The position numbers and the translations under genes are program-made. Positions 2,782-63,304 of a stretch of 64,000 nt of DNA are shown here, piece by piece. Origin of the DNA: a virus; IMG/VR virus record IMGVR_UViG_3300032397_000010, positions 1 through 64,000 of that record, one strand, 5' to 3'. The notes under the pieces were generated by a model that did not search any database, had not been told where the DNA came from, and saw nothing but the letters and a program-made list of their open reading frames with translations. Position 1 is the stretch's first letter, and each line of letters begins with the position of its first letter.

Positions 2782-3375
2782 TTAGCGGCGCTGAAACTGG
2801 GCCGGACGCTGGAACCCGACGGACTTCTTGTCGCGCACCGGCTTGTTCGCCGGAGCGAGTCCGAGCGTCGTGGCACCGAGAGATCCCGTGGCACCGATGA
2901 CGAGCCCGCCGGTCGCGCCGGTCGGACCTATCGTGCCGAGCTTCGCAGCAACCCATGCGGTGCAGTCTGGGTAGACCGACGCAAACGCGTTGAGCATGTC
3001 CGCCGAGCCCGACGGATACGCTCCGGCCTTGTCTGCCTGGAACGTGGCGAACATCGCCGCGCAGTCGCCGGGCGTCGGCGTCGCCGTGACGGTGCCCGTA
3101 GCGCCCGTGGCACCTGCCGTCGCTCCCGTCGTCCCCGTCGCGCCTGCAGTCGCGCCCGTGGCACCAGTGACGCCCGCTGTCACGCCAGTGGCCCCCGTGG
3201 CCTCTGCGGTGGCACCAGTGACGCCGGTCGGAGCAGGGCCCGAGAGTGTTCTCGCTGGGCCGGTCGCGCCGCCCGGCAACGCCGGAGCAGGAGCGGGAGC
3301 GGGCGTCATCTGCTTGGCGATGACGTACCCGAGAACGAAGCCGCCTGCGAGCCAGAGAAGATTCTTCGTGGGCAT
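2782..3375 (-). CDS. Membrane-anchored collagen-like protein with a paired-cysteine domain
   Basis: The 197-residue product has an N-terminal membrane segment (NLLWLAGGFVLGYVIAKQM, residues 5-23) and a proline-rich spacer. A Gly-(Ala/Val)-Thr triplet stretch covers about residues 50-100. The C-terminal domain has DC..MF..F and AFASVYPDC, two Asp-Cys pairs that may form a disulfide. The membrane segment is nearly the same as in 3385-4326 and 4366-5205, and the Cys domain is shared with the latter (AFAALMPDC). Inference: a surface- or virion-exposed stalk anchored in a membrane. The start is preceded by TGGTAGGAT rather than a Shine-Dalgarno sequence. Confidence 0.78.
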   Translation of the reverse strand: MPTKNLLWLAGGFVLGYVIAKQMTPAPAPAPALPGGATGPARTLSGPAPTGVTGATAEATGATGVTAGVTGATGATAGATGTTGATAGATGATGTVTATPTPGDCAAMFATFQADKAGAYPSGSADMLNAFASVYPDCTAWVAAKLGTIGPTGATGGLVIGATGSLGATTLGLAPANKPVRDKKSVGFQRPAQFQRR

Positions 3376-3381
3376 GGCGTG

Positions 3382-3390
3382 ATCCTACCA
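3382..3390 (-). promoter_or_regulatory. Extended -10 promoter box, leaderless type
   Basis: TG-G-TAGGAT on the minus strand, six bases before the ATG at 3375. It overlaps the TAG stop codon of the upstream gene, so part of the match could be coincidence. Confidence 0.45.
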
Positions 3391-4326
3391 GCGAGAGGGC
3401 AGGTGTTGCGAGGGGATCGGACGCGAGATGACGGTCTGCTGTCCGGGGGCGGGCCGGGACACGATGCCCTGGGCAGCCGGGGCGACGGGACGAGGACGAG
3501 GAAGACCGCGAGGAGCTTGCTTGGCGAGGTTCTGCCGATCGATCAGATCGACCCCCTCACGAAGGCACCACTGATCGAGGATGTTCACGACGTTCGAGGC
3601 GGCGTGATTCAGTTCTGTCTCAGTCCGAGCCCGAGCCTGAGCATCGGTTTCGCCTACGCGCCGACCAAGCCAGACCACGCCGACACGAATGTCTCCGTTG
3701 GAATTGAGCGTGATGCTCGTTCCTGTGACTCGCAGCGCGGAGATCACCATCTGGAGCTTCTCGAGACGGGTCCGAGGACGCGGCAAAGGGATGGCTTCAT
3801 CAACCGTGTTCCACGAATGACACTCGAGTTGTCCAGGGAACCCTGACCCTGGTCCGCGTACGATCGCGAACAACTGCTGAAGCCGACGCGGCGAGTAATC
3901 GGCTACGCCGAGGATGTGGATTGCTGCCTGTCTCGCTTCGTCGTCTCCGCCGAGCATGTCTCCGCCCTGCGGAACCTGGGGCTGGGGATAGGACGGGGGT
4001 GCGGGGCGTCCCTTCCCGTACGCCTGCCAGCCCACCGCACCCGCCGGGAGCGTGTACGAATGGCGCTTCGCCAGTTCGGCGTAGACGTATACTTCCCTCG
4101 GCGACATGGCGCGGAAGGGCCACGCCGCGTTCGCAGGGTAGTAGGACGCGTTCGCCGGGTTGGCCGTCGCACCCGTCTGACCGGTCATGCCGGTCGCACC
4201 GGTCGCACCGCCGATGAGCCCACGCACCGCGCCCTCGCCCGCAGCGAGACCCTGTGCCGGAGTCATGCGCTTCGCGACCATGTACCCAGCGACGAAACCG
4301 CCCGCCAACCACAGCATGTTGCTCAT
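3385..4326 (-). CDS. Membrane-anchored protein with short collagen-like stretch
   Basis: The 313-residue product begins with MLWLAGGFVAGYMVAKRM (residues 4-21), the same membrane segment as its two neighbours. Next come a short Gly-Ala-Thr/Gly-Met-Thr run (residues ~40-54) and an Asn-Pro-Ala-Asn linker. The remaining ~240 residues form a mixed domain unrelated to the neighbours, containing LQQLFAIVRGPGSGFPGQ and one Cys each in ECHSW and QWCLR. The C terminus is rich in Pro/Arg/Gln. No family was recognised. The shared N terminus suggests a family whose members keep one anchor and swap the exposed domain. Confidence 0.75.
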   Translation of the reverse strand: MSNMLWLAGGFVAGYMVAKRMTPAQGLAAGEGAVRGLIGGATGATGMTGQTGATANPANASYYPANAAWPFRAMSPREVYVYAELAKRHSYTLPAGAVGWQAYGKGRPAPPSYPQPQVPQGGDMLGGDDEARQAAIHILGVADYSPRRLQQLFAIVRGPGSGFPGQLECHSWNTVDEAIPLPRPRTRLEKLQMVISALRVTGTSITLNSNGDIRVGVVWLGRRVGETDAQARARTETELNHAASNVVNILDQWCLREGVDLIDRQNLAKQAPRGLPRPRPVAPAAQGIVSRPAPGQQTVISRPIPSQHLPSRW

Positions 4327-4334
4327 GGGGCGAG

Positions 4335-4340
4335 ATCGTA
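4335..4340 (-). promoter_or_regulatory. Possible -10 box (TACGAT), leaderless type
   Basis: TACGAT on the minus strand, eight bases before the ATG at 4326, fits TANNNT but lacks the upstream TG. Confidence 0.35.
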
Positions 4341-4365
4341 TCGTGCTCGCTGATGAACTACAAGC

Positions 4366-5205
4366 TCAGTACCCGATGCGACGACGGTACGCGGCAGCCC
4401 ATCCCTGACTCTGTCTCGCGCGCTCGATCAGCGTCGCGTTCGCAGGGTTCGCGGTCGGACCAGGAGGTGCGCCGAGAACTCCTTCGCGCCGATTGGTGCG
4501 AGCTTCCGCCGGAGCGAAGCTTCCCACGTCAGACGCGCTCGAGGTCTTGCTGTAGCCCATCGGAGCGACCACGGCTGTCGGCGGGCTCGAGCGGTTCGTG
4601 CGCGCCGTTTCCGTCCTCGGATAGGCCATCGGCGCGGGGCCAGGACGGAAGCCTACGGCTGGCCGCATGGGGCCGTTCGATGCGGCGTAGATCGGAGTCA
4701 GCGTGCGTGGCACAAGAGTCGATTCTGGGCGGGCATCGTAGAGAACCGGAGTCAGTGTTCGCGGCGCAACGGTTGATTCCGGCTGCGAAGCCCCGGTGCC
4801 GCTTGGGATGCGCGGAGTCATCCCGCTGCTTCCTGTTGATCCTGGAGGCGGCAAGCGCGAGAGACGGGCGTTCGCCATCCCGGCGCAGTCCGGCATGAGC
4901 GCGGCGAACGCGGTCAGCTTCTCTCGCGCGGTCGGGTACTCGGGATGCGCGGGCCAGAAGCTGTCGTACGCCGCCGAGCAGTCGGCGTCGGACATCGGCG
5001 TCGGTGCCGCGCCAGTCGTGCCCGTTGCGCCCGTCGTCCCTGTCGCACCGGCAGTCGCGCCCGTTGTGCCTGTCGCGCCCGTTGCACCGGCAGTCGCGCC
5101 GGGTCCAAGAGCAGCGACGGGGGCGGCGCTCATGCTCCGGTAGATCACGTAGCCGAGGCCGAGTCCGCCTGCGATCCAGAGCAAGTTCCGCGTCTGCTTC
5201 TTCAT
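4366..5205 (-). CDS. Membrane-anchored collagen-like protein with a paired-cysteine domain
   Basis: I place the start at the ATG at 5203-5205, which overlaps the stop of gene 5202-5435 as ATGA; a longer frame upstream is that gene's shadow. The 279-residue product has a membrane segment (NLLWIAGGLGLGYVIYRSM, residues 7-25), then Gly-Ala-Thr/Gly-Thr-Thr triplets (about residues 35-70). A domain with ADC.AAY..F and AFAALMPDC is shared with 2782-3375. Two similar segments follow (PESTVAPRTLTPVLYDARPE and PESTLVPRTLTPIYA), a short internal repeat. Probably an exposed stalk protein anchored in a membrane. Confidence 0.78.
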   Translation of the reverse strand: MKKQTRNLLWIAGGLGLGYVIYRSMSAAPVAALGPGATAGATGATGTTGATAGATGTTGATGTTGAAPTPMSDADCSAAYDSFWPAHPEYPTAREKLTAFAALMPDCAGMANARLSRLPPPGSTGSSGMTPRIPSGTGASQPESTVAPRTLTPVLYDARPESTLVPRTLTPIYAASNGPMRPAVGFRPGPAPMAYPRTETARTNRSSPPTAVVAPMGYSKTSSASDVGSFAPAEARTNRREGVLGAPPGPTANPANATLIERARQSQGWAAAYRRRIGY

Positions 5206-22101: not shown

Positions 22102-22343
22102 GCGACATGATCGGTGACGCCTACGAGGCCGGACGGCGCAGCGCGCTCGACCTGCTCGATGAGGTGATCTCGGCGCTGCCGAAGTGCGAGACCGCAGGGT
22201 GCGACGCCATCGCGCTGTGGCACTGCTTCGGGGACTACCGTCGGTGCGACGGACATCGCGGAGTCCATGCGTGCGCGCTCGGGTGCGAGACGGAGTACGG
22301 GTGGGCCGACGCGGTGCGCAAGCACCTGAAGGAACCACGCTGA
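22098..22343 (+). CDS. Small Cys/His-rich protein, GTG start
   Basis: The 81-residue product begins at the GTG of a GTGA overlap. A helical start (YEAGRRSALDLLDEVISALP) leads to CETAGCDAIALWHC, then CDGHRGVHACALGC. This set of cysteines and histidines may bind two metals. Unknown function. Confidence 0.68.
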   Translation: MSDMIGDAYEAGRRSALDLLDEVISALPKCETAGCDAIALWHCFGDYRRCDGHRGVHACALGCETEYGWADAVRKHLKEPR

Positions 22344-22672
22344 TGTGCTTCGACGCGGAGCCCCCGGAAGCGTTCTGGCAGTGCGTCCGGCGGGCGCGCA
22401 AGGAGCACCGTTGCTGCGAGTGTCGCATCACGATCGAGCCAGGAACTCGGTACGAGTACGTGAGCGGCATCTGGGATGGCTACGCGAACTCGTACAAGAC
22501 GTGCCTCGGGTGCGTATCGCTGCGTGATGCGGTGGTCGAGCACGAGCGCGCGGCAGGATGCTTTGGCAACGAGGCGTACCCGCCCCTCGGTGACCTGTAC
22601 ACATCCGCCCATGATATCGGGATCGTCTGCTACGTGCCGTGGCGGGATCAATACATCGAGGAGGCATCGTGA
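22343..22672 (+). CDS. Phage zinc-finger-like protein
   Basis: The 109-residue product has ARKEHRCCECRITIEPGTRY, then YVSGIWDGYANSYKTCLGC. This is a CxxC...CxxC pair in the arrangement of a common phage family (A.K.H.C..C...I..G..Y....G.WDG). A zinc-binding fold is likely; the role is unknown. TGATG and GTGA overlaps with neighbours. Confidence 0.72.
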   Translation: MCFDAEPPEAFWQCVRRARKEHRCCECRITIEPGTRYEYVSGIWDGYANSYKTCLGCVSLRDAVVEHERAAGCFGNEAYPPLGDLYTSAHDIGIVCYVPWRDQYIEEAS

Positions 22673-43763: not shown

Positions 43764-45644
43764 ATGACCACACAGCACAACTTCGGGCCCGTCGGGATCC
43801 TTGCTCCGACGACGGCAGACCTTCCCGATCCGAGACTGCTGCCTCTCGGCAACTACTTCTTCTCGGAGACGGACGGCAAGACGTACTTCGTCGCGCGTGA
43901 CGGTACGGGCCAGCACATCTGGAAACAGGTGATGGGTGCGGGCGCAGGCGGCAGTGCCATCGTCTGGCCGCTCGGTGTGCCGTGGTCCTCGATTGCCGCG
44001 CTCCTTGCTGCCGCTGGGGACGCCGCGCTTCTGCTCGTCGAGGGCGATCCGACTGGTGCGCCGCGCCTGATGACCGGCGCGGTTGGAGTCCCGTACGACT
44101 TCTCGTTCGTCATCTTCATCGGCGCTGCCAGCGATCGAACGAACAACGTCACGGTGCAGATGGACGTGAACGTCAAGGTAGACCCGCCCGTCCTGCGCTC
44201 GCGCGACATCATGTGGGCTCCGACGGCACCAGACCTCTTCGACGGTCCTGCCGATCCAGCGTTCGAGGTCGACCTCGACGGCGGCGGTGTCACGCCACCT
44301 GGACCGATCGGGGGCCGCTCCGTCTTCTTCGCCCCGAGCGGGTACTCGCCGCACAACTTCCGTCTCCGCAACGGAGCTATCCTCGACGGAACGAATCTGG
44401 CAGCTACCGACGAAGGAATCTGCCGTCTTCGCCCAAGCGTCAGCGACGAAGTGTTGGTCACGGTCGAGAGCTACGGTGGAATCTTCGGCCCGAAGAGCTT
44501 CATCAACTTCGTTCCCCCGGTGATCCCACCATTTCCTCCCTTCCCGGTTCCCACCACCGCTGTCGTCGAGGCGAACATGGACGCCAAGACACGCATCGAC
44601 CCTGGCTACAATGCAGTAGCGGTGGGAGGCAGCAACGTTGCGGTCCGGTATCAGGACGGCAGTTCTGTTCCTCTGAACCTGCCAGATCCGGCGAAGCGCG
44701 ATGTTTCCTCGTACGTGGCGTACGACGATGCGCTCGTGATGCCACCGCTCGGTGTAGGCAACGTCCAGGACGCGATCGATGTGCTCAAGAACAGCGCGCC
44801 GGATCTGGAGGCAGTGCTTGCTGTTGGCAACAAGTCGGGCCCTCACGACGTCCTGATGCAGGCCGGTCAAGCGGTCGACACGGACGGGGCGGCCCAGCTA
44901 TCGCTTGGCACCGGCAATGCCACGAGCATTGCGATGGGTCGCCCTCTGGGCGGCGCAGCAGACCTTCAGGTGTTCATCAACCAAGGTGGCGCTGCGTTCA
45001 TCTCGAACGCCGGAATCCAGTACTCTTCGACGTTCGCGAACCGAGCGCAGATTCGCCTGAACGCCTTCGGCGACCACGGTGGCGTGGCCGGAGTGACGGC
45101 GTTCAAGAGTCGCGGTGCGACGGTCACTGCCAAAGCGAGCGTGCTCGCTGGTGACCCGATCTACCGTGTCACGGTCATCGGTGTGACAGGCGACAACGAC
45201 AAGACTCCGGTCGCCGGGTACATCGACTTGAGCGTCGCTCCGGCAGGGGTCCAGCCGCTCTACGTCGCTTCGCAGTACGCCGTGTCGCTGGTGCCTCTCG
45301 AAGGTCCGATCAACTCCATCCAAGAGATGTGGAAGATCACCTCGCAGGGCGTTCCATGTCTCCGCGAGGAGTTCCATCAAGGCCCCAACGGTGACAGCGT
45401 CACCGTGGTCGCGGGCGTCATCGCTCTCGGACTCGGCGGAGTCGTCAATGTTCTGAATCCCAATATCAAGGCGAACACGCGCTTCACCCTCACCATTCAA
45501 GACGGAGGCGCGGTGCCGCTCGGCAGCGTCTACGTGGCTAGCCGAGTCGTCGGTCCTGGCGGAAGCTTCAACATCCAGTCCACCAACGCTGCCGATGTCG
45601 ACGTCCTGGTTTACTGGCAACTCTGGGAGCAGGTAGTACGGTGA
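43764..45644 (+). CDS. Large fibre-like protein with QHNFGP anchor module
   Basis: The 626-residue product starts with the module (TTQHNFGPVGIL, LLPLGNYFFSE, TYFVARDGTG, HIWKQ). A Gly/Ala-rich linker and two beta-rich domains follow. About residues 60-260 have Leu/Ala/Gly strands, and a DVSSYVAYDDALVMPPLGVG-like segment near 310 resembles fibre-core motifs. The C-terminal part (NIKANTRFTLTIQDGGAVPL...) is a tip-like beta domain. Its last codons overlap the next GTG start (GTGA). Likely a virion appendage; the module may dock it. No enzyme motif. Confidence 0.78.
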   Translation: MTTQHNFGPVGILAPTTADLPDPRLLPLGNYFFSETDGKTYFVARDGTGQHIWKQVMGAGAGGSAIVWPLGVPWSSIAALLAAAGDAALLLVEGDPTGAPRLMTGAVGVPYDFSFVIFIGAASDRTNNVTVQMDVNVKVDPPVLRSRDIMWAPTAPDLFDGPADPAFEVDLDGGGVTPPGPIGGRSVFFAPSGYSPHNFRLRNGAILDGTNLAATDEGICRLRPSVSDEVLVTVESYGGIFGPKSFINFVPPVIPPFPPFPVPTTAVVEANMDAKTRIDPGYNAVAVGGSNVAVRYQDGSSVPLNLPDPAKRDVSSYVAYDDALVMPPLGVGNVQDAIDVLKNSAPDLEAVLAVGNKSGPHDVLMQAGQAVDTDGAAQLSLGTGNATSIAMGRPLGGAADLQVFINQGGAAFISNAGIQYSSTFANRAQIRLNAFGDHGGVAGVTAFKSRGATVTAKASVLAGDPIYRVTVIGVTGDNDKTPVAGYIDLSVAPAGVQPLYVASQYAVSLVPLEGPINSIQEMWKITSQGVPCLREEFHQGPNGDSVTVVAGVIALGLGGVVNVLNPNIKANTRFTLTIQDGGAVPLGSVYVASRVVGPGGSFNIQSTNAADVDVLVYWQLWEQVVR

Positions 45645-46702
45645 CAACGCAACACAACTTCGGTCCCGTCGGCATCATCGGTTCGACCATCGCTGATCTG
45701 CCAGATCCGAAACTGCTTCCCCTCGGTGAGTACTTCATCTCCGGGGCCGACGGCCGGACGTTCTTCGTCGTGCGCAACGGAGCGGGGCAGCACGTCTGGG
45801 CGGAGGTCGCCGGAGCGGGCGTGGGATCATCGCCCAACTTCGTCCTCGCGGACTTCGGCACGCAGGATCCGTCGCAGGGGCGCTACACATCGTGGGTCGA
45901 CCTCATGGCCGCGCTCCAGCAGGTCCAGTATGGCGCGGCCCCTATGGTGCGCTGTGCCTTCGAGACCGGCCCGTTCACTGTCCCTCTCGTTGGAATGCCT
46001 GCGAGCGGATGGGATCTTCGAGGAGGACGGTTCACCAGCTTCTACGCTGCGTCTGGCACAGTGATTCTCGATCTTCCTGCGGGCGTGAAGATCGACAACT
46101 GCTTCGGCATCGGGTCTGGCGCAGACCCTGCGGCCGGTTCCCTCTTCCTCAAGATCGCCCCGCCTGCCGGGACCGGCGTGCTGGAGTGGACGGCGCTTCC
46201 TCCGGGGGCACCGAGCATCTTCTCTATCGGTGGTGGCTGCGCTGTGGATCACTCAACCAGCACGGGTGCGCTCATCCGCACGAACGGCGTCAACGGTTTT
46301 GCCGTGATCGCATGTGTCGGCGCGAATCAGAACGTGGGACTCGTTCCTCCACTCTCGGGTCCGCTCGTGCAGCTTCAGGGCAATGACGGTGCGGTCGGAG
46401 TTCAGCAACTTGCGCCCAACGGGTTGCCGGATGGCTGGATCGTTGGAGGCGGACTCACCAGCGGACTTCTGAGCATCTACGACATCTCGGCGAACCCGAA
46501 TACACCCAACCCGGCGGTGTGGATTCCCGGCTTCAGCGGAGGCGCGGGCGTGACGACGCCGTTCCCGCTCCAGAGATCGAGCCTGCTCAGCTACTCGCCT
46601 GTGGCTCCAGCGAACTGGGCGGGCTCGCCTGCGGATGTTGCCGCAGCGATCGATCGCCTCGCCGCTGCGGTCGTCGGGCTTCTTGGCGGACCGATCCCGT
46701 AA
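45641..46702 (+). CDS. Fibre-like protein with QHNFGP anchor module
   Basis: The start is the GTG at 45641 in a GTGA overlap with the previous stop. The 353-residue product has the module (VTTQHNFGPVGIIG..., LLPLGEYFISG, FFVVRNGAG, HVWAE), then a beta-rich body with a long Thr/Gly/Pro-rich middle (GPFTVPLVGMPASGWDL). It is the closest paralog of 394-1539 at the N terminus, with a different C-terminal half. GTG start and coupling suggest co-expression with 43764-45644. Confidence 0.75.
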   Translation: MTTQHNFGPVGIIGSTIADLPDPKLLPLGEYFISGADGRTFFVVRNGAGQHVWAEVAGAGVGSSPNFVLADFGTQDPSQGRYTSWVDLMAALQQVQYGAAPMVRCAFETGPFTVPLVGMPASGWDLRGGRFTSFYAASGTVILDLPAGVKIDNCFGIGSGADPAAGSLFLKIAPPAGTGVLEWTALPPGAPSIFSIGGGCAVDHSTSTGALIRTNGVNGFAVIACVGANQNVGLVPPLSGPLVQLQGNDGAVGVQQLAPNGLPDGWIVGGGLTSGLLSIYDISANPNTPNPAVWIPGFSGGAGVTTPFPLQRSSLLSYSPVAPANWAGSPADVAAAIDRLAAAVVGLLGGPIP

Positions 46703-46726: not shown

Positions 46727-47743
46727 ATGACCACGACGCAGCACAACTTCGCAACGACCGAGATCATCACCGACGGCCTGAGCCTGCCCGACGCGAGGTC
46801 GCTCCCGCTCGGAACCATCCTGATCCAGGAGACCACCGGCAGGAGCTACTACGTCGTCCGTGGCGGCGGCGGCATGCACATCTGGATGCTGTCCGGTTCC
46901 GGCGCGGCTGGTCCTCCCTTCCCGGCCACGGAGATTGTATTCGGGTCGGGAACTGGTCTCGCGAGTGATCCGCACTTCGTGTGGAACTCTGCCTCCGCCG
47001 CGCTCGTCGTTTACGACATGGCGGGCGTCCCGCTGTTCTCGACCAACGGCACCGCCCTGAATCGTTCGGCGTTCTTCAGGGACGCGGCGAACGTCGCGAT
47101 GGTCGAGATGTTCAGCAGGAACGATGGAACGCGGAAGTTCGACCTGCTCGACGAGAACGCGACAGCGATGCTGCACGTCAGCCTGTGGAGTTCCACCAGG
47201 ATCCTCGACGCGCTGAACCCCTTCGGCATTTCCGCCATGAGGATCGATACCTCTCCGGGCGTGCAGAACGTGCATTTTCGCGATGACTCTGGACGTGACC
47301 TATTCGTGATCGACGAGCTTGGTACGGCGCGAAGCGTGGCCGTGTCGGACGACACAGGTGCCCCGTTCGTCATCGCGAGCGCGCTGGCGGCGACGCGGAC
47401 GTTCGCGGTGGTCTTCCCGACGACCTCGTTCGGTGCCTTCAGCGTGAACACTCGGCCCGCAACGGCGGGCGTGACCTGCAACGACGTCGCCGACAACATG
47501 GTCTTCTACGTGGACGAGCGCGTCGCGTCGCGACACGCCGAGTTCGGCGCTCCCGCGCAGTTCGCGCCGTACACGCTGGCAACGCTGCCGCCCGTCGTTG
47601 ACAGTCAGCAAATCTGGGTGAGCGACGGGCACAAGCTCATCGATCCTCCGGGACCAGGGACCGGCACGGGCGTCATGGCGTACGGGTCGCTGCTGCCCGT
47701 TCCGGCGTGGCGCGTGTTCTCGACTGACCTGCCCGTCGCGTAG
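46727..47743 (+). CDS. Fibre-like protein with QHNFGP-type module
   Basis: The 338-residue product begins TTTQHNFATTEII and continues with SLPLGTILIQE, RSYYVVRGGGG, HIWML, a slightly diverged copy of the anchor module. The remainder has asparagine/phenylalanine-rich strands (NDGTRKFDLLDENATAMLHV) and an Asp-rich tail, another fibre-like shaft. Weak Shine-Dalgarno (AGAGAC). Followed by a promoter-bearing gap. Confidence 0.75.
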   Translation: MTTTQHNFATTEIITDGLSLPDARSLPLGTILIQETTGRSYYVVRGGGGMHIWMLSGSGAAGPPFPATEIVFGSGTGLASDPHFVWNSASAALVVYDMAGVPLFSTNGTALNRSAFFRDAANVAMVEMFSRNDGTRKFDLLDENATAMLHVSLWSSTRILDALNPFGISAMRIDTSPGVQNVHFRDDSGRDLFVIDELGTARSVAVSDDTGAPFVIASALAATRTFAVVFPTTSFGAFSVNTRPATAGVTCNDVADNMVFYVDERVASRHAEFGAPAQFAPYTLATLPPVVDSQQIWVSDGHKLIDPPGPGTGTGVMAYGSLLPVPAWRVFSTDLPVA

Positions 47744-47826: not shown

Positions 47827-48030
47827 ATGGCCGGTCCCGCTGACATCCAGAACAACTTCGGTCCCATCACCATCGTCGGCAAGGACTGCACGCTCATGCC
47901 CGACCCGCGTGAGCTTCGTCTCGGCACCTGCTTCGTCGAAGAGGTGAGCGGCGCGGCACACTTCGTCGTGCGTGTTGTGACGCCCGGACCGACGTTCGGG
48001 CATCACATCTGGATGCCTCCCTGCATCTGA
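47827..48030 (+). CDS. Free-standing QHNFGP-type module, copy 1
   Basis: The 67-residue product is only the module: DIQNNFGPITIVG, LMPDPRELRLGTCFVEE, HFVVR, HHIWMPPC. Two Cys (CTLM, PPC) could form a disulfide. GGAGGAG precedes the ATG. It is followed 15 bases later by a second such gene. A stand-alone version of a docking domain could cap unused docking sites or join other proteins. Inference only. Confidence 0.72.
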   Translation: MAGPADIQNNFGPITIVGKDCTLMPDPRELRLGTCFVEEVSGAAHFVVRVVTPGPTFGHHIWMPPCI

Positions 48031-48045
48031 TCGAGGAGGAACAAC

Positions 48046-48240
48046 ATGGCCGGGACCATCGACATCCAGATCAACTACGAGCCTCGCACCGTTCTCGGTG
48101 CGACATGCTTGCTTCTGCCGGATCCTCGTCAGCTTCCCCTTGGTACGCGCTGGGTGGACGAGGAGACGGGGCAGTCTCGCTACGTCGTCCGCACGCCTGT
48201 GACCCTTGTTCACAGGTGGATGCCCGCCTGCCTCAGGTAG
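48046..48240 (+). CDS. Free-standing QHNFGP-type module, copy 2
   Basis: The 64-residue product matches the previous one (MAGTIDIQINYEP..., LLLPDPRQLPLGTRWVDEE, RYVVR, HRWMPAC). It has two Cys in similar places (TC near residue 19 and PAC at the end). GAGGA upstream. Tandem duplicate of 47827-48030. Confidence 0.72.
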   Translation: MAGTIDIQINYEPRTVLGATCLLLPDPRQLPLGTRWVDEETGQSRYVVRTPVTLVHRWMPACLR

Positions 48241-49891: not shown

Positions 49892-50437
49892 TTACTTGAG
49901 AATAACCACTGGATCAACTGATGCGACGTAGAGCGCATACGCTCCGACGGCGATGACAGCGAACAGCCCGAGGCTTGTGCCGGGCGATCCTGTTCCAAGA
50001 CGCACGGAAGCCTCGGCGCTTGCGACGTACTGGTCGTCCGCCTGCGGCCTCGCTCGAGTGACCATGTTCCAGGCTTCCTGCGGAGACTGACCGAGCGATC
50101 GGAGGTACGCGTAGGCCATCGACGGCGAACGGGAGACTCCAGCCGCGCAGTGGACGAGGATCTTCCGTCCGGGCTGCGCGAGGACGGCCCGGATCAGCGC
50201 GACGCCCTTCTGGTACGCCGACGGCGGCTGTGGGCCTCCGCGATCGAGCATCGGCAGGTAGAAGTACCGGATGCCCGTGCCGCCGTAGACCTCGGGCATG
50301 GGCCGCTCGTGCGCAGCGGGCTCGCCCCGCAGGTCCAGGACGTCCGTGATCCCGGCGCGGCGCATCGCGGGCAGCCACGAAGCGTCCGGGACGGATCCGA
50401 TCGCGAGGCGCGGGGTGATCCAGACGAAGTCAGCCAC
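49892..50437 (-). CDS. Dual-specificity protein phosphatase with C-terminal membrane segment
   Basis: The 181-residue product has the protein tyrosine/dual-specificity phosphatase signature HCAAGVSRS (His96, catalytic Cys97, Arg103, Ser104) and the upstream general acid Asp65 (LPMLDRGG). The usual DSP domain covers about residues 5-135. A C-terminal membrane segment (about 156-174, LGLFAVIAVGAYALYV) is unusual for phage proteins. Known DSPs remove phosphate from Ser/Thr/Tyr; targets could be host signalling or cell-envelope proteins. It overlaps the RlpA-like gene by 8 bases. Confidence 0.87.
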   Translation of the reverse strand: MADFVWITPRLAIGSVPDASWLPAMRRAGITDVLDLRGEPAAHERPMPEVYGGTGIRYFYLPMLDRGGPQPPSAYQKGVALIRAVLAQPGRKILVHCAAGVSRSPSMAYAYLRSLGQSPQEAWNMVTRARPQADDQYVASAEASVRLGTGSPGTSLGLFAVIAVGAYALYVASVDPVVILK

Positions 50438-50918
50438 GGTGTCTCCTTGACCACAGGAACGCTATGCCTGCTCCCGCGAGGACAGCGACGATCCACGGAA
50501 GATTCGACTCGGTCTCTCGGAAGGGTCCGAGCGGCACGTTGTTGCCGACGCGCCACGCCTTGACGATCCAGCGATCCGACCAGCCGACGTGACGTACGCC
50601 GAAGAGATGCTGCACCACCATGGGCGATGCGTCGATGATGGGCCCACCCGCGCGGTCTTCGACCCAGCATGCCGGTCCGTCGTCCACAACCTCGGCGATA
50701 CAGCTTGCTCCCGTTCGAGGGTTCACGACACGAACGTGGGTGCCGCATCCGAAGCGATGCGAGCCCGCGATGTAGAACCAACTTCCGTCCACGACGGGAC
50801 CGCAGGCTGTGTGCTGAGCATCTGCGCCGCCTCCGAAAGTCGTGAGGTAGTAGAGGTCGTCAGCAGGCAGGTTTCGGCCCGTGTTCTCACCCTGCCGAGA
50901 GCATCGGTAGTCAGCCAC
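50430..50918 (-). CDS. RlpA-like double-psi beta-barrel protein, C-terminally anchored
   Basis: The 162-residue product fits the RlpA/DPBB pattern (rare lipoprotein A, expansin-like). It has TTFGGGADAQHTACG, FGCGTHVRVVNPRTGASC, VVDDGPACW and IIDASPMVVQHLFG with the Asp before Ala-Ser. The catalytic-type Asp and His are present; bacterial RlpA cleaves naked glycan strands of peptidoglycan. There is no signal peptide or lipobox. A C-terminal membrane segment (LPWIVAVLAGAGIAFLW, ~138-155) and a basic tail RRHRG follow. A wall-active entry or lysis enzyme is likely. Confidence 0.82.
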   Translation of the reverse strand: MADYRCSRQGENTGRNLPADDLYYLTTFGGGADAQHTACGPVVDGSWFYIAGSHRFGCGTHVRVVNPRTGASCIAEVVDDGPACWVEDRAGGPIIDASPMVVQHLFGVRHVGWSDRWIVKAWRVGNNVPLGPFRETESNLPWIVAVLAGAGIAFLWSRRHRG

Positions 50919-51534
50919 GACGACCGTACTTCCTCCAGGCGTAGTACCCGCCCCCGGCGAGGGCCGCCGCGACGAGCAGTGCTGGCGGGACGAACGATCC
51001 TCTGACGACGAGCCAGGACGGCACGTCGCGAGGCGCAGGATGGCCGTAGCGCCCCGCCTGCGTCCAGAGAGAGGCGCTGCTCCCTCCGTCGGTGTACATC
51101 GCCTCGTCGGCCCCTGCGCGAGCGAACTCCTCCGCGAACTGCCACATGCTCATCTGGCCGACGGCGAAGGCCAGCGTGCCGTCCCGCATGATCGCCATCC
51201 CGGCCCGCCACTCAGCACTCGTATCGACGGATGGCGAAGCCACGTTCCGGCCGTTCACCACGAGCGTGGGGTATCCCTGCACGGCGACCCGAGCCCCAGG
51301 AACGACGCTGGCTCCGTCGGTCGCGAAAGGAAGGTTCCCGACGACGGAGATTGTCATTCCGTCGTCAGGGTGACGACTCGGCACGGACGTCCCGTTGACG
51401 CGGTCGTACAGCAGGTACTCGGACCCCGACCCATCGAACATGGGTCCGTCGAGCGCGAGCACGGCGCGATCCATGTCCGGTGGGTCGAGCAGCACCGCGA
51501 GGTCGCGCGCCGAGAACGACCTGACCGTGATCAC
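50911..51534 (-). CDS. Phosphodiester glycosidase-like (NAGPA/DUF2233) protein, C-terminally anchored
   Basis: The start is the GTG at 51532-51534 (207 residues). The NAGPA/DUF2233 pattern is present: ARVAVQGYPTLVVNGR, SAEWRAGMAIMRDGT, AFAVGQMSMWQFAEEF and the signature GADEAMYTDGGSSASLW. Known members hydrolyse phosphodiester-linked sugars; in phages the role is open. A C-terminal membrane segment (~180-198, VPPALLVAAALAGGGYYAW) and a basic tail RKYGRRG mirror the two neighbours. It overlaps the RlpA-like gene by 8 bases. Confidence 0.8.
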   Translation of the reverse strand: MITVRSFSARDLAVLLDPPDMDRAVLALDGPMFDGSGSEYLLYDRVNGTSVPSRHPDDGMTISVVGNLPFATDGASVVPGARVAVQGYPTLVVNGRNVASPSVDTSAEWRAGMAIMRDGTLAFAVGQMSMWQFAEEFARAGADEAMYTDGGSSASLWTQAGRYGHPAPRDVPSWLVVRGSFVPPALLVAAALAGGGYYAWRKYGRRG

Positions 51535-51535
51535 G

Positions 51536-52126
51536 CTACACGCCGTAGGTCGGTAGCAGCGTCGCGTTCCCGTAGGCCTGCCGCGCTTCGGTGTTGATCA
51601 GGGCCACGATGCCGAGAGGAAGCGTGTACGGGGCCGACTGGAGCGACGTGCCCGAGATCGTGAGGAAGCCGTCCACGAACCGCGAGGCGTCCTGGAACAC
51701 CGAGGTCGGCAACGCTGCGGGCGCGCTGCCAGCGGGCAGGTTCATCATCAGTTCGTAGTACCGCTTCGTGCGCGGTCCGTACTCGCCGTCCGGCGGATCG
51801 ATGATCTGCCCGGTGAGCGGCGAATCTCCGCTCGTGAGCGCCTGGGTGGCGCTGTACAGCAGGTTCTGGAACCAGTAGGTGCGTCGCGCGGCCTTCGATG
51901 CGCTCAGGCGGGTGACCATGGCGGTCACGGCGGGTGGCCGAGGAGCGCCGAGAGGAGGCGTCGGTACAGGTCCGGTCGGCGTCGTTCCGCCTCCCGTGCG
52001 CGGACGTGGCGGCGGAAGGGAAGCCGCGTTGGCATCGCTCGAGCGCGTGAGGATGTACACAGGGATCCCAACCACGGCTGCGCCGATGAGAACCTTCGTC
52101 CAGGGGAATGCTTTCCTGCTTGCCAT
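51536..52126 (-). CDS. Membrane-anchored protein, first gene of the wall cassette
   Basis: The 196-residue product has an N-terminal membrane segment (WTKVLIGAAVVGIPVYILT, residues 9-27) and a Pro/Thr-rich stalk (LPPPRPRTGGGTTPTGPVPT). A helical domain with DGEYGPRTKRYYELMM faintly resembles peptidoglycan-binding helices (Gly-Pro-x-Thr). Function unknown; likely part of the same envelope/virion set. Start behind TGATATCCT with no Shine-Dalgarno. Confidence 0.7.
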   Translation of the reverse strand: MASRKAFPWTKVLIGAAVVGIPVYILTRSSDANAASLPPPRPRTGGGTTPTGPVPTPPLGAPRPPAVTAMVTRLSASKAARRTYWFQNLLYSATQALTSGDSPLTGQIIDPPDGEYGPRTKRYYELMMNLPAGSAPAALPTSVFQDASRFVDGFLTISGTSLQSAPYTLPLGIVALINTEARQAYGNATLLPTYGV

Positions 52127-52132
52127 GCGCGG

Positions 52133-52141
52133 AGGATATCA
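52133..52141 (-). promoter_or_regulatory. Extended -10 box, leaderless type
   Basis: TG-A-TATCCT on the minus strand, six bases before ATG 52126; divergent to 52149. Confidence 0.6.
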
Positions 52142-52148
52142 CGGGTTG

Positions 52149-52157
52149 TGGTAGTTT
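52149..52157 (+). promoter_or_regulatory. Extended -10 box, leaderless type (GTG start)
   Basis: TG-G-TAGTTT, six bases before the GTG at 52164; the two divergent boxes are seven bases apart. Confidence 0.6.
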
Positions 52158-52163
52158 CGGCGA

Positions 52164-53474
52164 GTGGCAATTCAATTCCTCGGCGAACGAACCCTGCAGG
52201 CCGTCACGTCCGGCCCGCCCCGCCCCCGCGTCTACCTGGACTCGGCAGCGACCACGCTGATGGCCGAGCCTGTCAACCGGGTCATGCAGCGGTATCTGGC
52301 GTCAGGCTGGTACTCGAACCCGCACTCGGAACTCACGACGCCGTCGCGCGTCACGGCCGAGGTGATCGCCGAGGCGCGAGGACTTCTGGCCCGCCTCGTG
52401 GATGCCCCCGAAGGACACGTCGTGGTCTTCGGTGGATCCGGGGCAACGGAGCCCCTGAACATCCTGAGCGTGGCGCTGTTCTGTGAGGGCAGCGTCCGAG
52501 ACACGGTCGTCGTGACGCCGCAGGAGCACCACAGCAACCTCTTGCCGTGGATGCGTGCCGCATCACGCCTGATCGTGTCCCCGCTGAACAACGACGGATC
52601 TCTGGATCTCGAGGTGTTCGAGAAGATCCTGCTTGCCGAAGGGAAACGAATCCGTCTCGTGGCCGTGACGGCAATCTCGAACGTCACGGGCGTGCGCAAC
52701 CCGATCAGCGAGATCGCGAGGATCGCTCATCGTGTCGGCGCGGAAGTTGTCGTCGATGCGACGCAGGCTGTCGCTCACGTCCCGCTCTCGATGCGAACCC
52801 TCGGGATCGACTACCTCGTCGCGTCGGGACACAAGATGTACGCGCCTGGGACTCCGGGCTGGATGGTGATCCCGTCCACGATGCCATGCGATCGGTGGGA
52901 ACCGGGCAACGTCGGCGGCGGAACGGTCGATGCGGTCTGGATGGACAAGGCATCGGTGAAGTTCAAGTCGAGCATCATCGACCGACTCGAGGGCGGCACC
53001 GTGAACATCCCCGGCATCGTGGGTCTCGGCGCGGCAGCCCAGATGCTGATGCAGCAAGGGCTTCGGCAGATTCAGGATCACGAGCAGGTCTTGATGACGC
53101 GGATGCGTGACGGTCTCGAGGCGATCGGCGGCGTCGCAACGTACGGCCCCGGCGACCGCGTGGGCATCCTGGCGTTCAACATCGAAGGGTTCACCTTCGA
53201 TCAGGTCGCGTCCGCCCTGAACGACTACTTCGCGATCTCGGTGCGCGCCGGAGCGTTCTGCGCCCACCCGTACGTGCGCGATCTGCTCGATGGGCAGACG
53301 GGCCGACTCGGCATGGTGCGAGCTTCGCTGGGCATGTACACGACGATCGAGGATATCGACGCGTTCCTGGCTGCGGTACGATGGATCGTCGCGAACCGCG
53401 AGAAGGTCGTCACGCCGCGCGAGCCTCCCGCCGGAGAATTCTCGATCACGAAGGAGATGAGTGATGGCTCGTAA
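52164..53474 (+). CDS. Cysteine-desulfurase-like aminotransferase class V enzyme
   Basis: The start is GTG 52164 (436 residues). The class V/SufS-type fold is clear: VYLDSAATTLM, then VVFGGSGATEPLNIL, TPQEHHSNLLPW, VVVDATQAVAHVPLSM, and the PLP lysine Lys224 in SGHKMYAPGTPG. The active-site Cys lies in AGAFCAHP (Cys366). SufS/NifS enzymes take sulfur from cysteine for Fe-S clusters or tRNA/DNA thiolation. A phage copy beside a GP88-type Cys-rich gene hints at supply for that protein, or nucleotide/DNA sulfur modification. No Dnd genes are visible. The end overlaps the next start by 11 bases. Confidence 0.87.
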   Translation: MAIQFLGERTLQAVTSGPPRPRVYLDSAATTLMAEPVNRVMQRYLASGWYSNPHSELTTPSRVTAEVIAEARGLLARLVDAPEGHVVVFGGSGATEPLNILSVALFCEGSVRDTVVVTPQEHHSNLLPWMRAASRLIVSPLNNDGSLDLEVFEKILLAEGKRIRLVAVTAISNVTGVRNPISEIARIAHRVGAEVVVDATQAVAHVPLSMRTLGIDYLVASGHKMYAPGTPGWMVIPSTMPCDRWEPGNVGGGTVDAVWMDKASVKFKSSIIDRLEGGTVNIPGIVGLGAAAQMLMQQGLRQIQDHEQVLMTRMRDGLEAIGGVATYGPGDRVGILAFNIEGFTFDQVASALNDYFAISVRAGAFCAHPYVRDLLDGQTGRLGMVRASLGMYTTIEDIDAFLAAVRWIVANREKVVTPREPPAGEFSITKEMSDGS

Positions 53475-62605: not shown

Positions 62606-62613
62606 CAGCCGAA

Positions 62614-62638
62614 GGGCGGGAGCAGAATGCCCCCGCCC
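62614..62638. terminator. GC hairpin between gene 61874-62605 and the tmRNA 3' end
   Basis: GGGCGGG (62614-62620) pairs with CCCGCCC (62632-62638) with an 11-base loop. It lies in the convergent gap and could stop transcription from both sides; no T-run is visible. Confidence 0.45.
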
Positions 62639-62659
62639 CTCGTCCAGTGCTGCGAACTG

Positions 62660-63009
62660 GGTGGACCCGCCCGGAATCGAACCGGGGTCCGCGAGACCAT
62701 TCTGAAGCAGATCCTACGTGGCCCTGTTCGGTGTGTCTCTTCGCCCTCCGAGCATCCCCACCGACAGGGTCTCGTCCGGTTTCACCGCCTGTTTCTCACT
62801 TCGGATCGACGGTGGTCTTCCGAAGCCAGCCCGGTCTATTTGCACCCCGCCGAGTGACCCAGGCTTACAGCCCGGAGGGATGGCTACGCGGCTTGCCGCG
62901 CAGCAGTGGCGTTGTCGTTCGCGACTCAGTTTGGGGCAGCTTGAAAGGTCCACCCCAGCCTTGGCACGCACTCCTTCGTTCAAGTCCCACGTCGAAGCCT
63001 GTCGGGCCC
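62660..63009 (-). ncRNA. ssrA: Transfer-messenger RNA (tmRNA)
   Basis: A complete one-piece tmRNA of about 350 bases is encoded on the minus strand. The acceptor stem pairs 5' GGGCCCG (63009-63003) with 3' CGGGTCC (62669-62663), with one G3-U wobble, the alanine identity element. The T arm is CCCGG-TTCGATT-CCGGG. The 5' part has GGCTTCGACGTGGGA, as in all tmRNAs. An mRNA-like part encodes a proteolysis tag (62884-62922). The encoded 3' end reads A-CC-C-A, not CCA, so host CCA addition or trimming is needed. It releases stalled ribosomes with SmpB. Phage-encoded tmRNAs exist but are rare. Confidence 0.95.
62884..62922 (-). CDS. tmRNA tag peptide reading frame
   Basis: After AGTC the resume codon GCG (62922-62920) opens a frame encoding ANDNATAARQAA, then stop TAG (62886-62884). 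With the charged Ala the tag is A-ANDNATAARQAA. ANDN at the start and AA at the end fit tmRNA tags recognised by ClpXP; the inner ATAARQ replaces the usual YALA. Confidence 0.93.
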   Translation of the reverse strand, partial: ANDNATAARQAA

Positions 63010-63022
63010 GTCGTGACCGCTG

Positions 63023-63031
63023 ACTCTACCA
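63023..63031 (-). promoter_or_regulatory. Extended -10 box upstream of the tmRNA
   Basis: TG-G-TAGAGT on the minus strand, 13 bases before the mature 5' end, overlapping the end of the upstream gene. The tmRNA may have its own promoter. Confidence 0.5.
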
Positions 63032-63034
63032 GAA

Positions 63035-63259
63035 TCAGCCCTCGTCCGCTCCTTCGTCGGCGGGCTCACCCGTCGGCAGGCGGTCCAGGATCCGGTCGTA
63101 GACGCCGAAGACCGTCTCGGGCGTGACGTCGGGCCCGAAGGCCTTCCTTGCGAGTTGCTGGGCGATCTGCAGGTCGCGGTACACCGCCTGCGTGATCTGA
63201 CCCATGAACGCAAGATACTGCTCCTGCGTGATCTGAACCGGTTGCTGCTGCTCGTCCAT
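63035..63259 (-). CDS. Small helical protein upstream of the tmRNA
   Basis: The 74-residue product (MDEQQQPVQITQEQYLAFMG...) is helical and acidic, with QITQAVYRDLQIAQQLARKA and a Glu/Asp-rich end (GEPADEGADEG). GGAGGC before the ATG. It lies 25 bases upstream of the tmRNA on the same strand, so the two could share a transcript. Function unknown. Confidence 0.65.
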   Translation of the reverse strand: MDEQQQPVQITQEQYLAFMGQITQAVYRDLQIAQQLARKAFGPDVTPETVFGVYDRILDRLPTGEPADEGADEG

Positions 63260-63274
63260 GTTGCCTCCGTGAGC

Positions 63275-63304
63275 GTTGTACTGCATACCGCTTGCGGTAG
63301 TCAA
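63275..63304 (-). promoter_or_regulatory. TTGACT-N18-TACAAC promoter with CCGCAAGCG in the spacer
   Basis: On the minus strand TTGACT (63304-63299) is followed by CCGCAAGCG (63297-63289) and TACAAC (63280-63275). It is leadered: 15 bases and GGAGGC follow before ATG 63259. TACCGC-TT-GCGGTA is an inverted repeat here. Confidence 0.6.

What the first reader, a model, noticed from the sequence alone, without database searches (positions are those of the whole stretch)
62660..63009. Complete phage-encoded tmRNA with an unusual tag
All tmRNA hallmarks are present: alanine-type acceptor with G3-U, TTCGAC-bearing 5' part, T arm, and a tag frame ANDNATAARQAA. Phage tmRNAs are rare and their purpose is debated. 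The tag keeps ANDN and terminal AA but replaces the common hydrophobic YALA core, so it may be read less well, or differently, by host ClpXP. It may rescue ribosomes on leaderless or nuclease-cut phage mRNAs, which would suit the promoter style of this genome.
Basis: partly seen in the sequence, partly recalled or inferred. Interest (0 to 1): 0.8.

Follow-up and report, generated by a model that had tools for sequence, protein, structure and literature searches.

The report
Phage tmRNA with a divergent tag
This virus contig carries an intact, probably expressed gene for tmRNA, the RNA that frees stalled ribosomes and labels their unfinished proteins; such genes are already known in a few percent of phages, and the unusual label fits a wider drift of phage labels away from bacterial ones.

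Summary
A complete one-piece tmRNA gene lies at 62659/62660-63009 on the minus strand (ARAGORN; Rfam RF00023, 113 bits, E 1.7e-43), with tag ANDNATAARQAA. Acceptor with G3-U70, T arm and resume-codon context are intact. An extended -10 box (TGGTAGAGT), of the kind this contig places before leaderless genes, lies 13 nt upstream.

It is a new member of a known kind. A published survey puts tmRNAs in 2.3% of phages, and 193 mycobacteriophage records share one with a far stranger tag. No SmpB gene was found here or in 28 other tmRNA-bearing virus contigs (some are fragments), so host SmpB is probably used. The closest tmRNAs found are in other metagenomic virus contigs; the 3' part occurs in none of 84,980 bacterial and archaeal genomes, which speaks against recent capture from a sampled host.

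Most likely it raises tmRNA dosage during infection to recycle ribosomes stalled on broken mRNA. The tag probably weakens ClpXP recognition only modestly: the two critical terminal alanines are kept and only the antepenultimate leucine is replaced (Gln). A Cre-like tyrosine recombinase gene 2.1 kb away leaves tmRNA-linked lysogeny possible but untested.

The parts
62659..63009 (-). tmRNA (ssrA-type) gene, one-piece
   Evidence: ARAGORN, Rfam RF00023 113.3 bits E 1.7e-43
63003..63009 (-). 5' strand of acceptor stem GGGCCCG, including G3 of the G3-U70 alanine identity pair
   Evidence: pairs 7 of 7 with 62663-62669; in 12 aligned tmRNAs all acceptor cells pair, G-U at position 3 in 12 of 12, pairs 4-6 vary with compensatory types
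62663..62669 (-). 3' strand of acceptor stem CGGGUCC, followed by ACC-C (CCA not encoded)
   Evidence: sequence, pairing
62670..62686 (-). T arm CCCGG-UUCGAUU-CCGGG
   Evidence: sequence and alignment
62932..62965 (-). pseudoknot PK1: AAGG/CCUU and UGGGG/CCCCA
   Evidence: read by eye from the sequence against the E. coli layout; no tool scored the pseudoknot; the Rfam alignment covers the second stem
62884..62922 (-). tag reading frame GCG AAC GAC AAC GCC ACT GCT GCG CGG CAA GCC GCG TAG = ANDNATAARQAA*
   Evidence: ARAGORN positions 88-126
62883..62904 (-). hairpin (helix 5) holding the last six tag codons and the stop; the Gln codon CAA supplies the loop
   Evidence: inverted repeat I9, 10-nt arms 90% complementary, 2 nt apart; in the MFE fold
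63023..63031 (-). extended -10 promoter element TGGTAGAGT, 13 nt before the mature 5' end
   Evidence: TANNNT ends 6-7 nt before 12 start codons of the contig (about 0.4 expected); TGNTANNNT occurs 22 times in 140 kb of strand; no sigma-70 consensus promoter found
62610..62642 (.). strong G+C hairpin between the convergent ends of the tmRNA gene and the plus-strand gene; possible two-way terminator without a T run
   Evidence: inverted repeat I1, 15-nt arms 87% complementary
63035..63286 (-). short upstream gene on the same strand (83 aa, no family match)
   Evidence: gene call, Pfam none

Best explanation
It is a working phage tmRNA, transcribed from its own extended -10 promoter, trimmed by host RNases, completed with CCA and charged with alanine by host enzymes, and delivered to stalled ribosomes by host SmpB. 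Its main service is dosage: extra tmRNA during infection, when broken messages strand many ribosomes, keeps ribosomes available for phage protein synthesis. The tag is under weaker selection as a degradation signal than in bacteria, so released fragments are probably still degraded, somewhat less efficiently. Shown: gene, fold motifs, tag, promoter-like element, no SmpB found on the contig. Inferred: expression, charging, SmpB use, benefit.
For: Rfam and ARAGORN hits; acceptor, G3-U70, T arm and resume context intact; promoter element of the contig's own style; no SmpB in this contig or in 28 other tmRNA-bearing virus contigs; the closest tmRNAs found are from other virus contigs, with ANDN tags of varying ends; virus tags end in hydrophobic-A-[AV] in 27 of 45 unique cases against 19 of 20 bacterial ones. 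[quoted passage not shown]
Against: No RNA data for this phage; host unknown; contig probably incomplete, so an SmpB gene could lie outside it. The tag comparison is biased by the patterns used to collect tmRNAs, by relatedness, and by possible ARAGORN frame errors. No close relative was found in which to test selection on the tag.
Confidence: 0.6

Rival explanations
1. Tag swap: the phage tmRNA competes with host tmRNA for SmpB and stalled ribosomes and adds a tag that ClpXP reads poorly, sparing tagged phage fragments or relieving the protease.
For: The antepenultimate Leu is Gln and the YALA-type core is gone; other virus tags also have polar residues there (RAA, HAA) or end quite differently.
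Against: Both terminal alanines, whose mutation raised KM in direct tests, are kept; changing the antepenultimate Leu raises KM only modestly (PMC7652416). The ANDN start, which in E. coli serves the SspB adaptor (own knowledge), is kept. Several related virus tmRNAs keep RLAA or ALAA-like ends.
Confidence: 0.18
2. tmRNA-linked lysogeny: the phage integrates in host ssrA through its tyrosine recombinase, breaks it, and supplies a replacement tmRNA, by analogy with tRNA-dependent lysogeny.
For: A tyrosine recombinase gene (PF00589, 29.9 bits, over cut-off) with R...HxxR...H...Y residues lies at contig 65155-66234, 2.1 kb from the tmRNA. tRNA-dependent lysogeny is shown in mycobacteriophages, and some phages integrate in host tmRNA genes (PMC10865867, PMC3029335).
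Against: The recombinase resembles Cre/Xer enzymes, which may serve circle or dimer resolution. No attP-like copy of tmRNA sequence longer than 10 nt lies near it. Of 28 other tmRNA-bearing virus contigs only 2 have a recombinase over the cut-off.
Confidence: 0.12
3. Passenger: a host ssrA gene carried off by imprecise excision and kept without function.
For: ssrA is a common integration site and a recombinase is nearby; imprecise excision has been proposed for phage ssrA (PMC9004378).
Against: All critical motifs are intact; the 3' part is in none of 84,980 genomes and no near-identical copy turned up in about 1,490 genomes of four phyla; the promoter is of the contig's own style.
Confidence: 0.08

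Closest known systems
Mycobacteriophage tmRNA of the Bxz1/Tonenili group
   Same: Complete one-piece phage tmRNA, GGGCCTGACAGGTTTCGAC start, tag not ending in LAA (ATDTDATVTDAEIEAFFAEEAAALV), no SmpB found in the Tonenili-type IMG/VR contig tested.
   Different: Lies in a large tRNA array and has a long acidic tag; here the tmRNA stands alone with no tRNA on the 70-kb contig.
tmRNAs of virus contigs IMGVR 3300037484_000445 (L137, 452 kb) and 3300009506_000003 (L124, 133 kb)
   Same: Nearest sequences found (71-74% over aligned positions), ANDN tags, same acceptor type; L124 shares 29 nt exactly at the 3' end.
   Different: Tags end ADRLVA and AQRLAA; L137 has tRNAs beside it; the window's primase has no match in either contig.
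Methylophage Melnitz tmRNA
   Same: Phage-borne ssrA thought to support hijacked translation (PMC9004378).
   Different: Two-piece tmRNA under a glutamine riboswitch.
Huge phages with tmRNA and SmpB
   Same: Phage-encoded ribosome rescue (PMC7162821).
   Different: SmpB is reported among those genomes; none was found on this contig.

Membership tests
tmRNA (Rfam RF00023, one-piece) | Covariance-model score over the curated threshold across the full model | tested here: met
   113.3 bits against 47, model 1-374
tmRNA (Rfam RF00023, one-piece) | Alanine-type acceptor with G3-U70 and a T arm | tested here: met
   7 of 7 and 5 of 5 pairs, G3-U70
tmRNA (Rfam RF00023, one-piece) | Tag frame with resume codon and in-frame stop | tested here: met
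   ANDNATAARQAA*, 62884-62922
tmRNA (Rfam RF00023, one-piece) | PK1 before the tag | tested here: inconclusive
   both stems can be drawn by eye; no tool scored the pseudoknot
tmRNA (Rfam RF00023, one-piece) | Alanylation, SmpB binding, tagging of nascent chains | not testable with these tools
   needs biochemistry
Bacterial ssrA degron | Hydrophobic residue followed by terminal Ala-Ala | tested here: not met
   ends Q-A-A; 19 of 20 unique bacterial tags collected end hydrophobic-A-[AV]
tRNA/tmRNA-dependent lysogeny | Integrase with attP core matching the host gene, phage copy of that gene | tested here: inconclusive
   recombinase and tmRNA present; no att-like copy over 10 nt near it; host unknown
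Phage tmRNA-SmpB pair | smpB on the phage | tested here: inconclusive
   no PF01668 match at E 1 on the 70,130-base contig, which is probably incomplete

The most novel reading that the evidence does not exclude
Phages as a group have relaxed or changed the degradation code of tmRNA, keeping ribosome rescue while swapping in tags that host ClpXP reads poorly; this tmRNA would be one intermediate example.
Probability: 0.2. Interest if true: 0.65.

Novelty: new member of a known kind. Interest (0 to 1): 0.35.

Why it matters
Phage tmRNAs are on record, but no test of their benefit turned up in the papers searched here. A natural series of tags, from bacterial-like to fully changed, would let one ask directly whether phages need ribosome rescue, protein degradation, or both.

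Tried and rejected
Prophage edge or host contamination: phage-type small genes lie on both sides, a gene at 22343-22672 has a relative at contig 67964-68302 (87 of 106 aligned positions identical), and no ssrA fragment longer than 14 nt is repeated in the contig. Second tmRNA or SmpB on the contig: none. Circular contig: no end overlap. Close relatives: none for the 1143-aa protein, one 40% relative for a helicase, none for the tmRNA in deposited phages (hits at E up to 10 are short, weak matches, the listed ones inside protein genes). An ANDNAT-tag pattern hit five virus loci; ARAGORN finds no tmRNA there. Finding the host through tmRNA similarity failed; searches matched nothing at all, so their silence is weak. 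Papers: no hit for the phrase 'phage-encoded tmRNA'.

Full report
Observation. ARAGORN reports a single RNA gene in the window, a tmRNA at 62660-63009 on the minus strand with tag ANDNATAARQAA. Rfam RF00023 matches 62659-63009 end to end with 113.3 bits, E 1.7e-43. The acceptor GGGCCCG/CGGGUCC pairs fully with G3-U70, the T arm pairs fully, and in an alignment with 11 other tmRNAs every acceptor cell pairs, G-U at position 3 in all, with compensatory types at positions 4 to 6. PK1 can be drawn by eye (AAGG/CCUU, UGGGG/CCCCA). The resume codon follows GAGUC. After the discriminator A the DNA has CCC, so the CCA end must be made by host enzymes. The MFE is only mildly low (z -1.6).

Anatomy. The last six tag codons and the stop lie in a 10-bp hairpin whose loop is made by the Gln codon; since that codon is in the loop, pairing does not force Gln. 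The gene has its own promoter-like element: TGGTAGAGT ends 13 nt before the mature 5' end. This contig places TANNNT 6-7 nt before 12 start codons where about 0.4 would be expected, often with TGN before it, the mark of leaderless transcripts. With the same spacing the tmRNA start would leave a leader of about 6-7 nt for RNase P (inference). A G+C hairpin lies between the tmRNA and the convergent gene.

Context. The contig is a 70,130-base IMG/VR virus record without end overlap. It has Prim-Pol primase, a phage-type DEAD helicase, a Sak4-like annealing protein, a PD-(D/E)XK exonuclease, and tail-fibre and spike-type domains. No terminase or capsid gene was recognised among the proteins scanned, so it is probably a fragment. 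It has no tRNA gene and no SmpB match. A tyrosine recombinase (PF00589) lies at contig 65155-66234, outside the window, 2.1 kb from the tmRNA; its PDB relatives are Cre and XerD.

Relatives. The exact 29 nt of the 3' end occur in one other virus contig, L124, and a slightly relaxed form in none of 84,980 bacterial and archaeal genomes. Other virus contigs with the same kind of 5' end carry tmRNAs with tags such as ANDNVEQVAQRLAA, ANDNAVRVAA, ANDSSYAQARAA, ANDNVTPLEAAA and ANDNSIADRLVA. Pairwise, L137, L124, L130 and L264 are closest, ahead of Solirubrobacterales tmRNAs; this ranking covers only tmRNAs collected by pattern. BLAST of the whole gene against about 1,490 genomes in four phyla gave at most short matches. 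None of 28 other tmRNA-bearing virus contigs has an SmpB match; several are fragments.

Tag. Of 45 unique virus tags collected, 27 end in a hydrophobic residue or Ala, then A, then A or V; of 20 unique bacterial tags 19 do (Fisher p 0.0035). The samples are pattern-biased and related, and some virus frames may be miscalled, so this is a lead. It agrees with deposited phages: a tmRNA at least 90% identical to that of Mycobacterium phage Tonenili is in 193 records, and the tag noted for one of them (Asterius) is ATDTDATVTDAEIEAFFAEEAAALV. In E. coli, mutating either terminal Ala raises KM for ClpXP; changing the antepenultimate Leu does so modestly (PMC7652416). The window's tag keeps AA and loses the Leu, so a modest effect is the fair prediction, for a host whose ClpX is unknown.

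Function. [quoted passage not shown] Together with intact motifs, an own promoter-like element and no SmpB found, this favours a dosage supplement to host rescue. Tag swapping and tmRNA-linked lysogeny remain possible; the latter rests on the nearby recombinase and on tRNA-dependent lysogeny (PMC10865867), but no att-like core longer than 10 nt was found.

Novelty. Phage tmRNAs: 402 of 18,146 genomes (PMC9004378); early lists in PMC4131195; huge phages with tmRNA and SmpB (PMC7162821); Bradyrhizobium elkanii phages with tmRNA and no tRNA (PMC12656738).

Noticed in passing
whole window, e.g. 3375, 32844, 48250, 51536-52164, 58341, 59331: Leaderless-type promoters: TANNNT, often TGNTANNNT, ends 6-7 nt before 12 predicted start codons (about 0.4 expected); 16 genes with spacing 4-9 nt, including the recombinase gene outside the window.
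   Followed up: partly
L002:10155-11234 (contig 65155-66234, minus): Cre/Xer-like tyrosine recombinase 2.1 kb from the tmRNA, catalytic residues apparently intact.
   Followed up: partly
52164-53474 (+): Cysteine desulfurase-like protein (Aminotran_5; SufS family model 260 bits, below that model's cut-off); unusual phage cargo.
   Followed up: no
394-1539, 43764-45644, 45641-46702, 46727-47743, 47827-48240: Family of proteins sharing the start TTQHNFGPVGI or a variant of it, on both strands; one carries a K1-lyase C-terminal domain, so probably tail spike or virion parts.
   Followed up: partly
2782-5205 (-): Neighbouring genes with alike N-terminal membrane-like segments (LLWLAGGFVxGYxxAKxMTPA or near it).
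   Followed up: no
49892-50437 and 50911-51534 (-): A dual-specificity phosphatase-like protein (PF00782) and a phosphodiester glycosidase-like protein (PF09992) close together.
   Followed up: no
22343-22672 (+) and L002:12964-13302 (contig 67964-68302): Duplicated gene, 87 of 106 aligned positions identical.
   Followed up: partly
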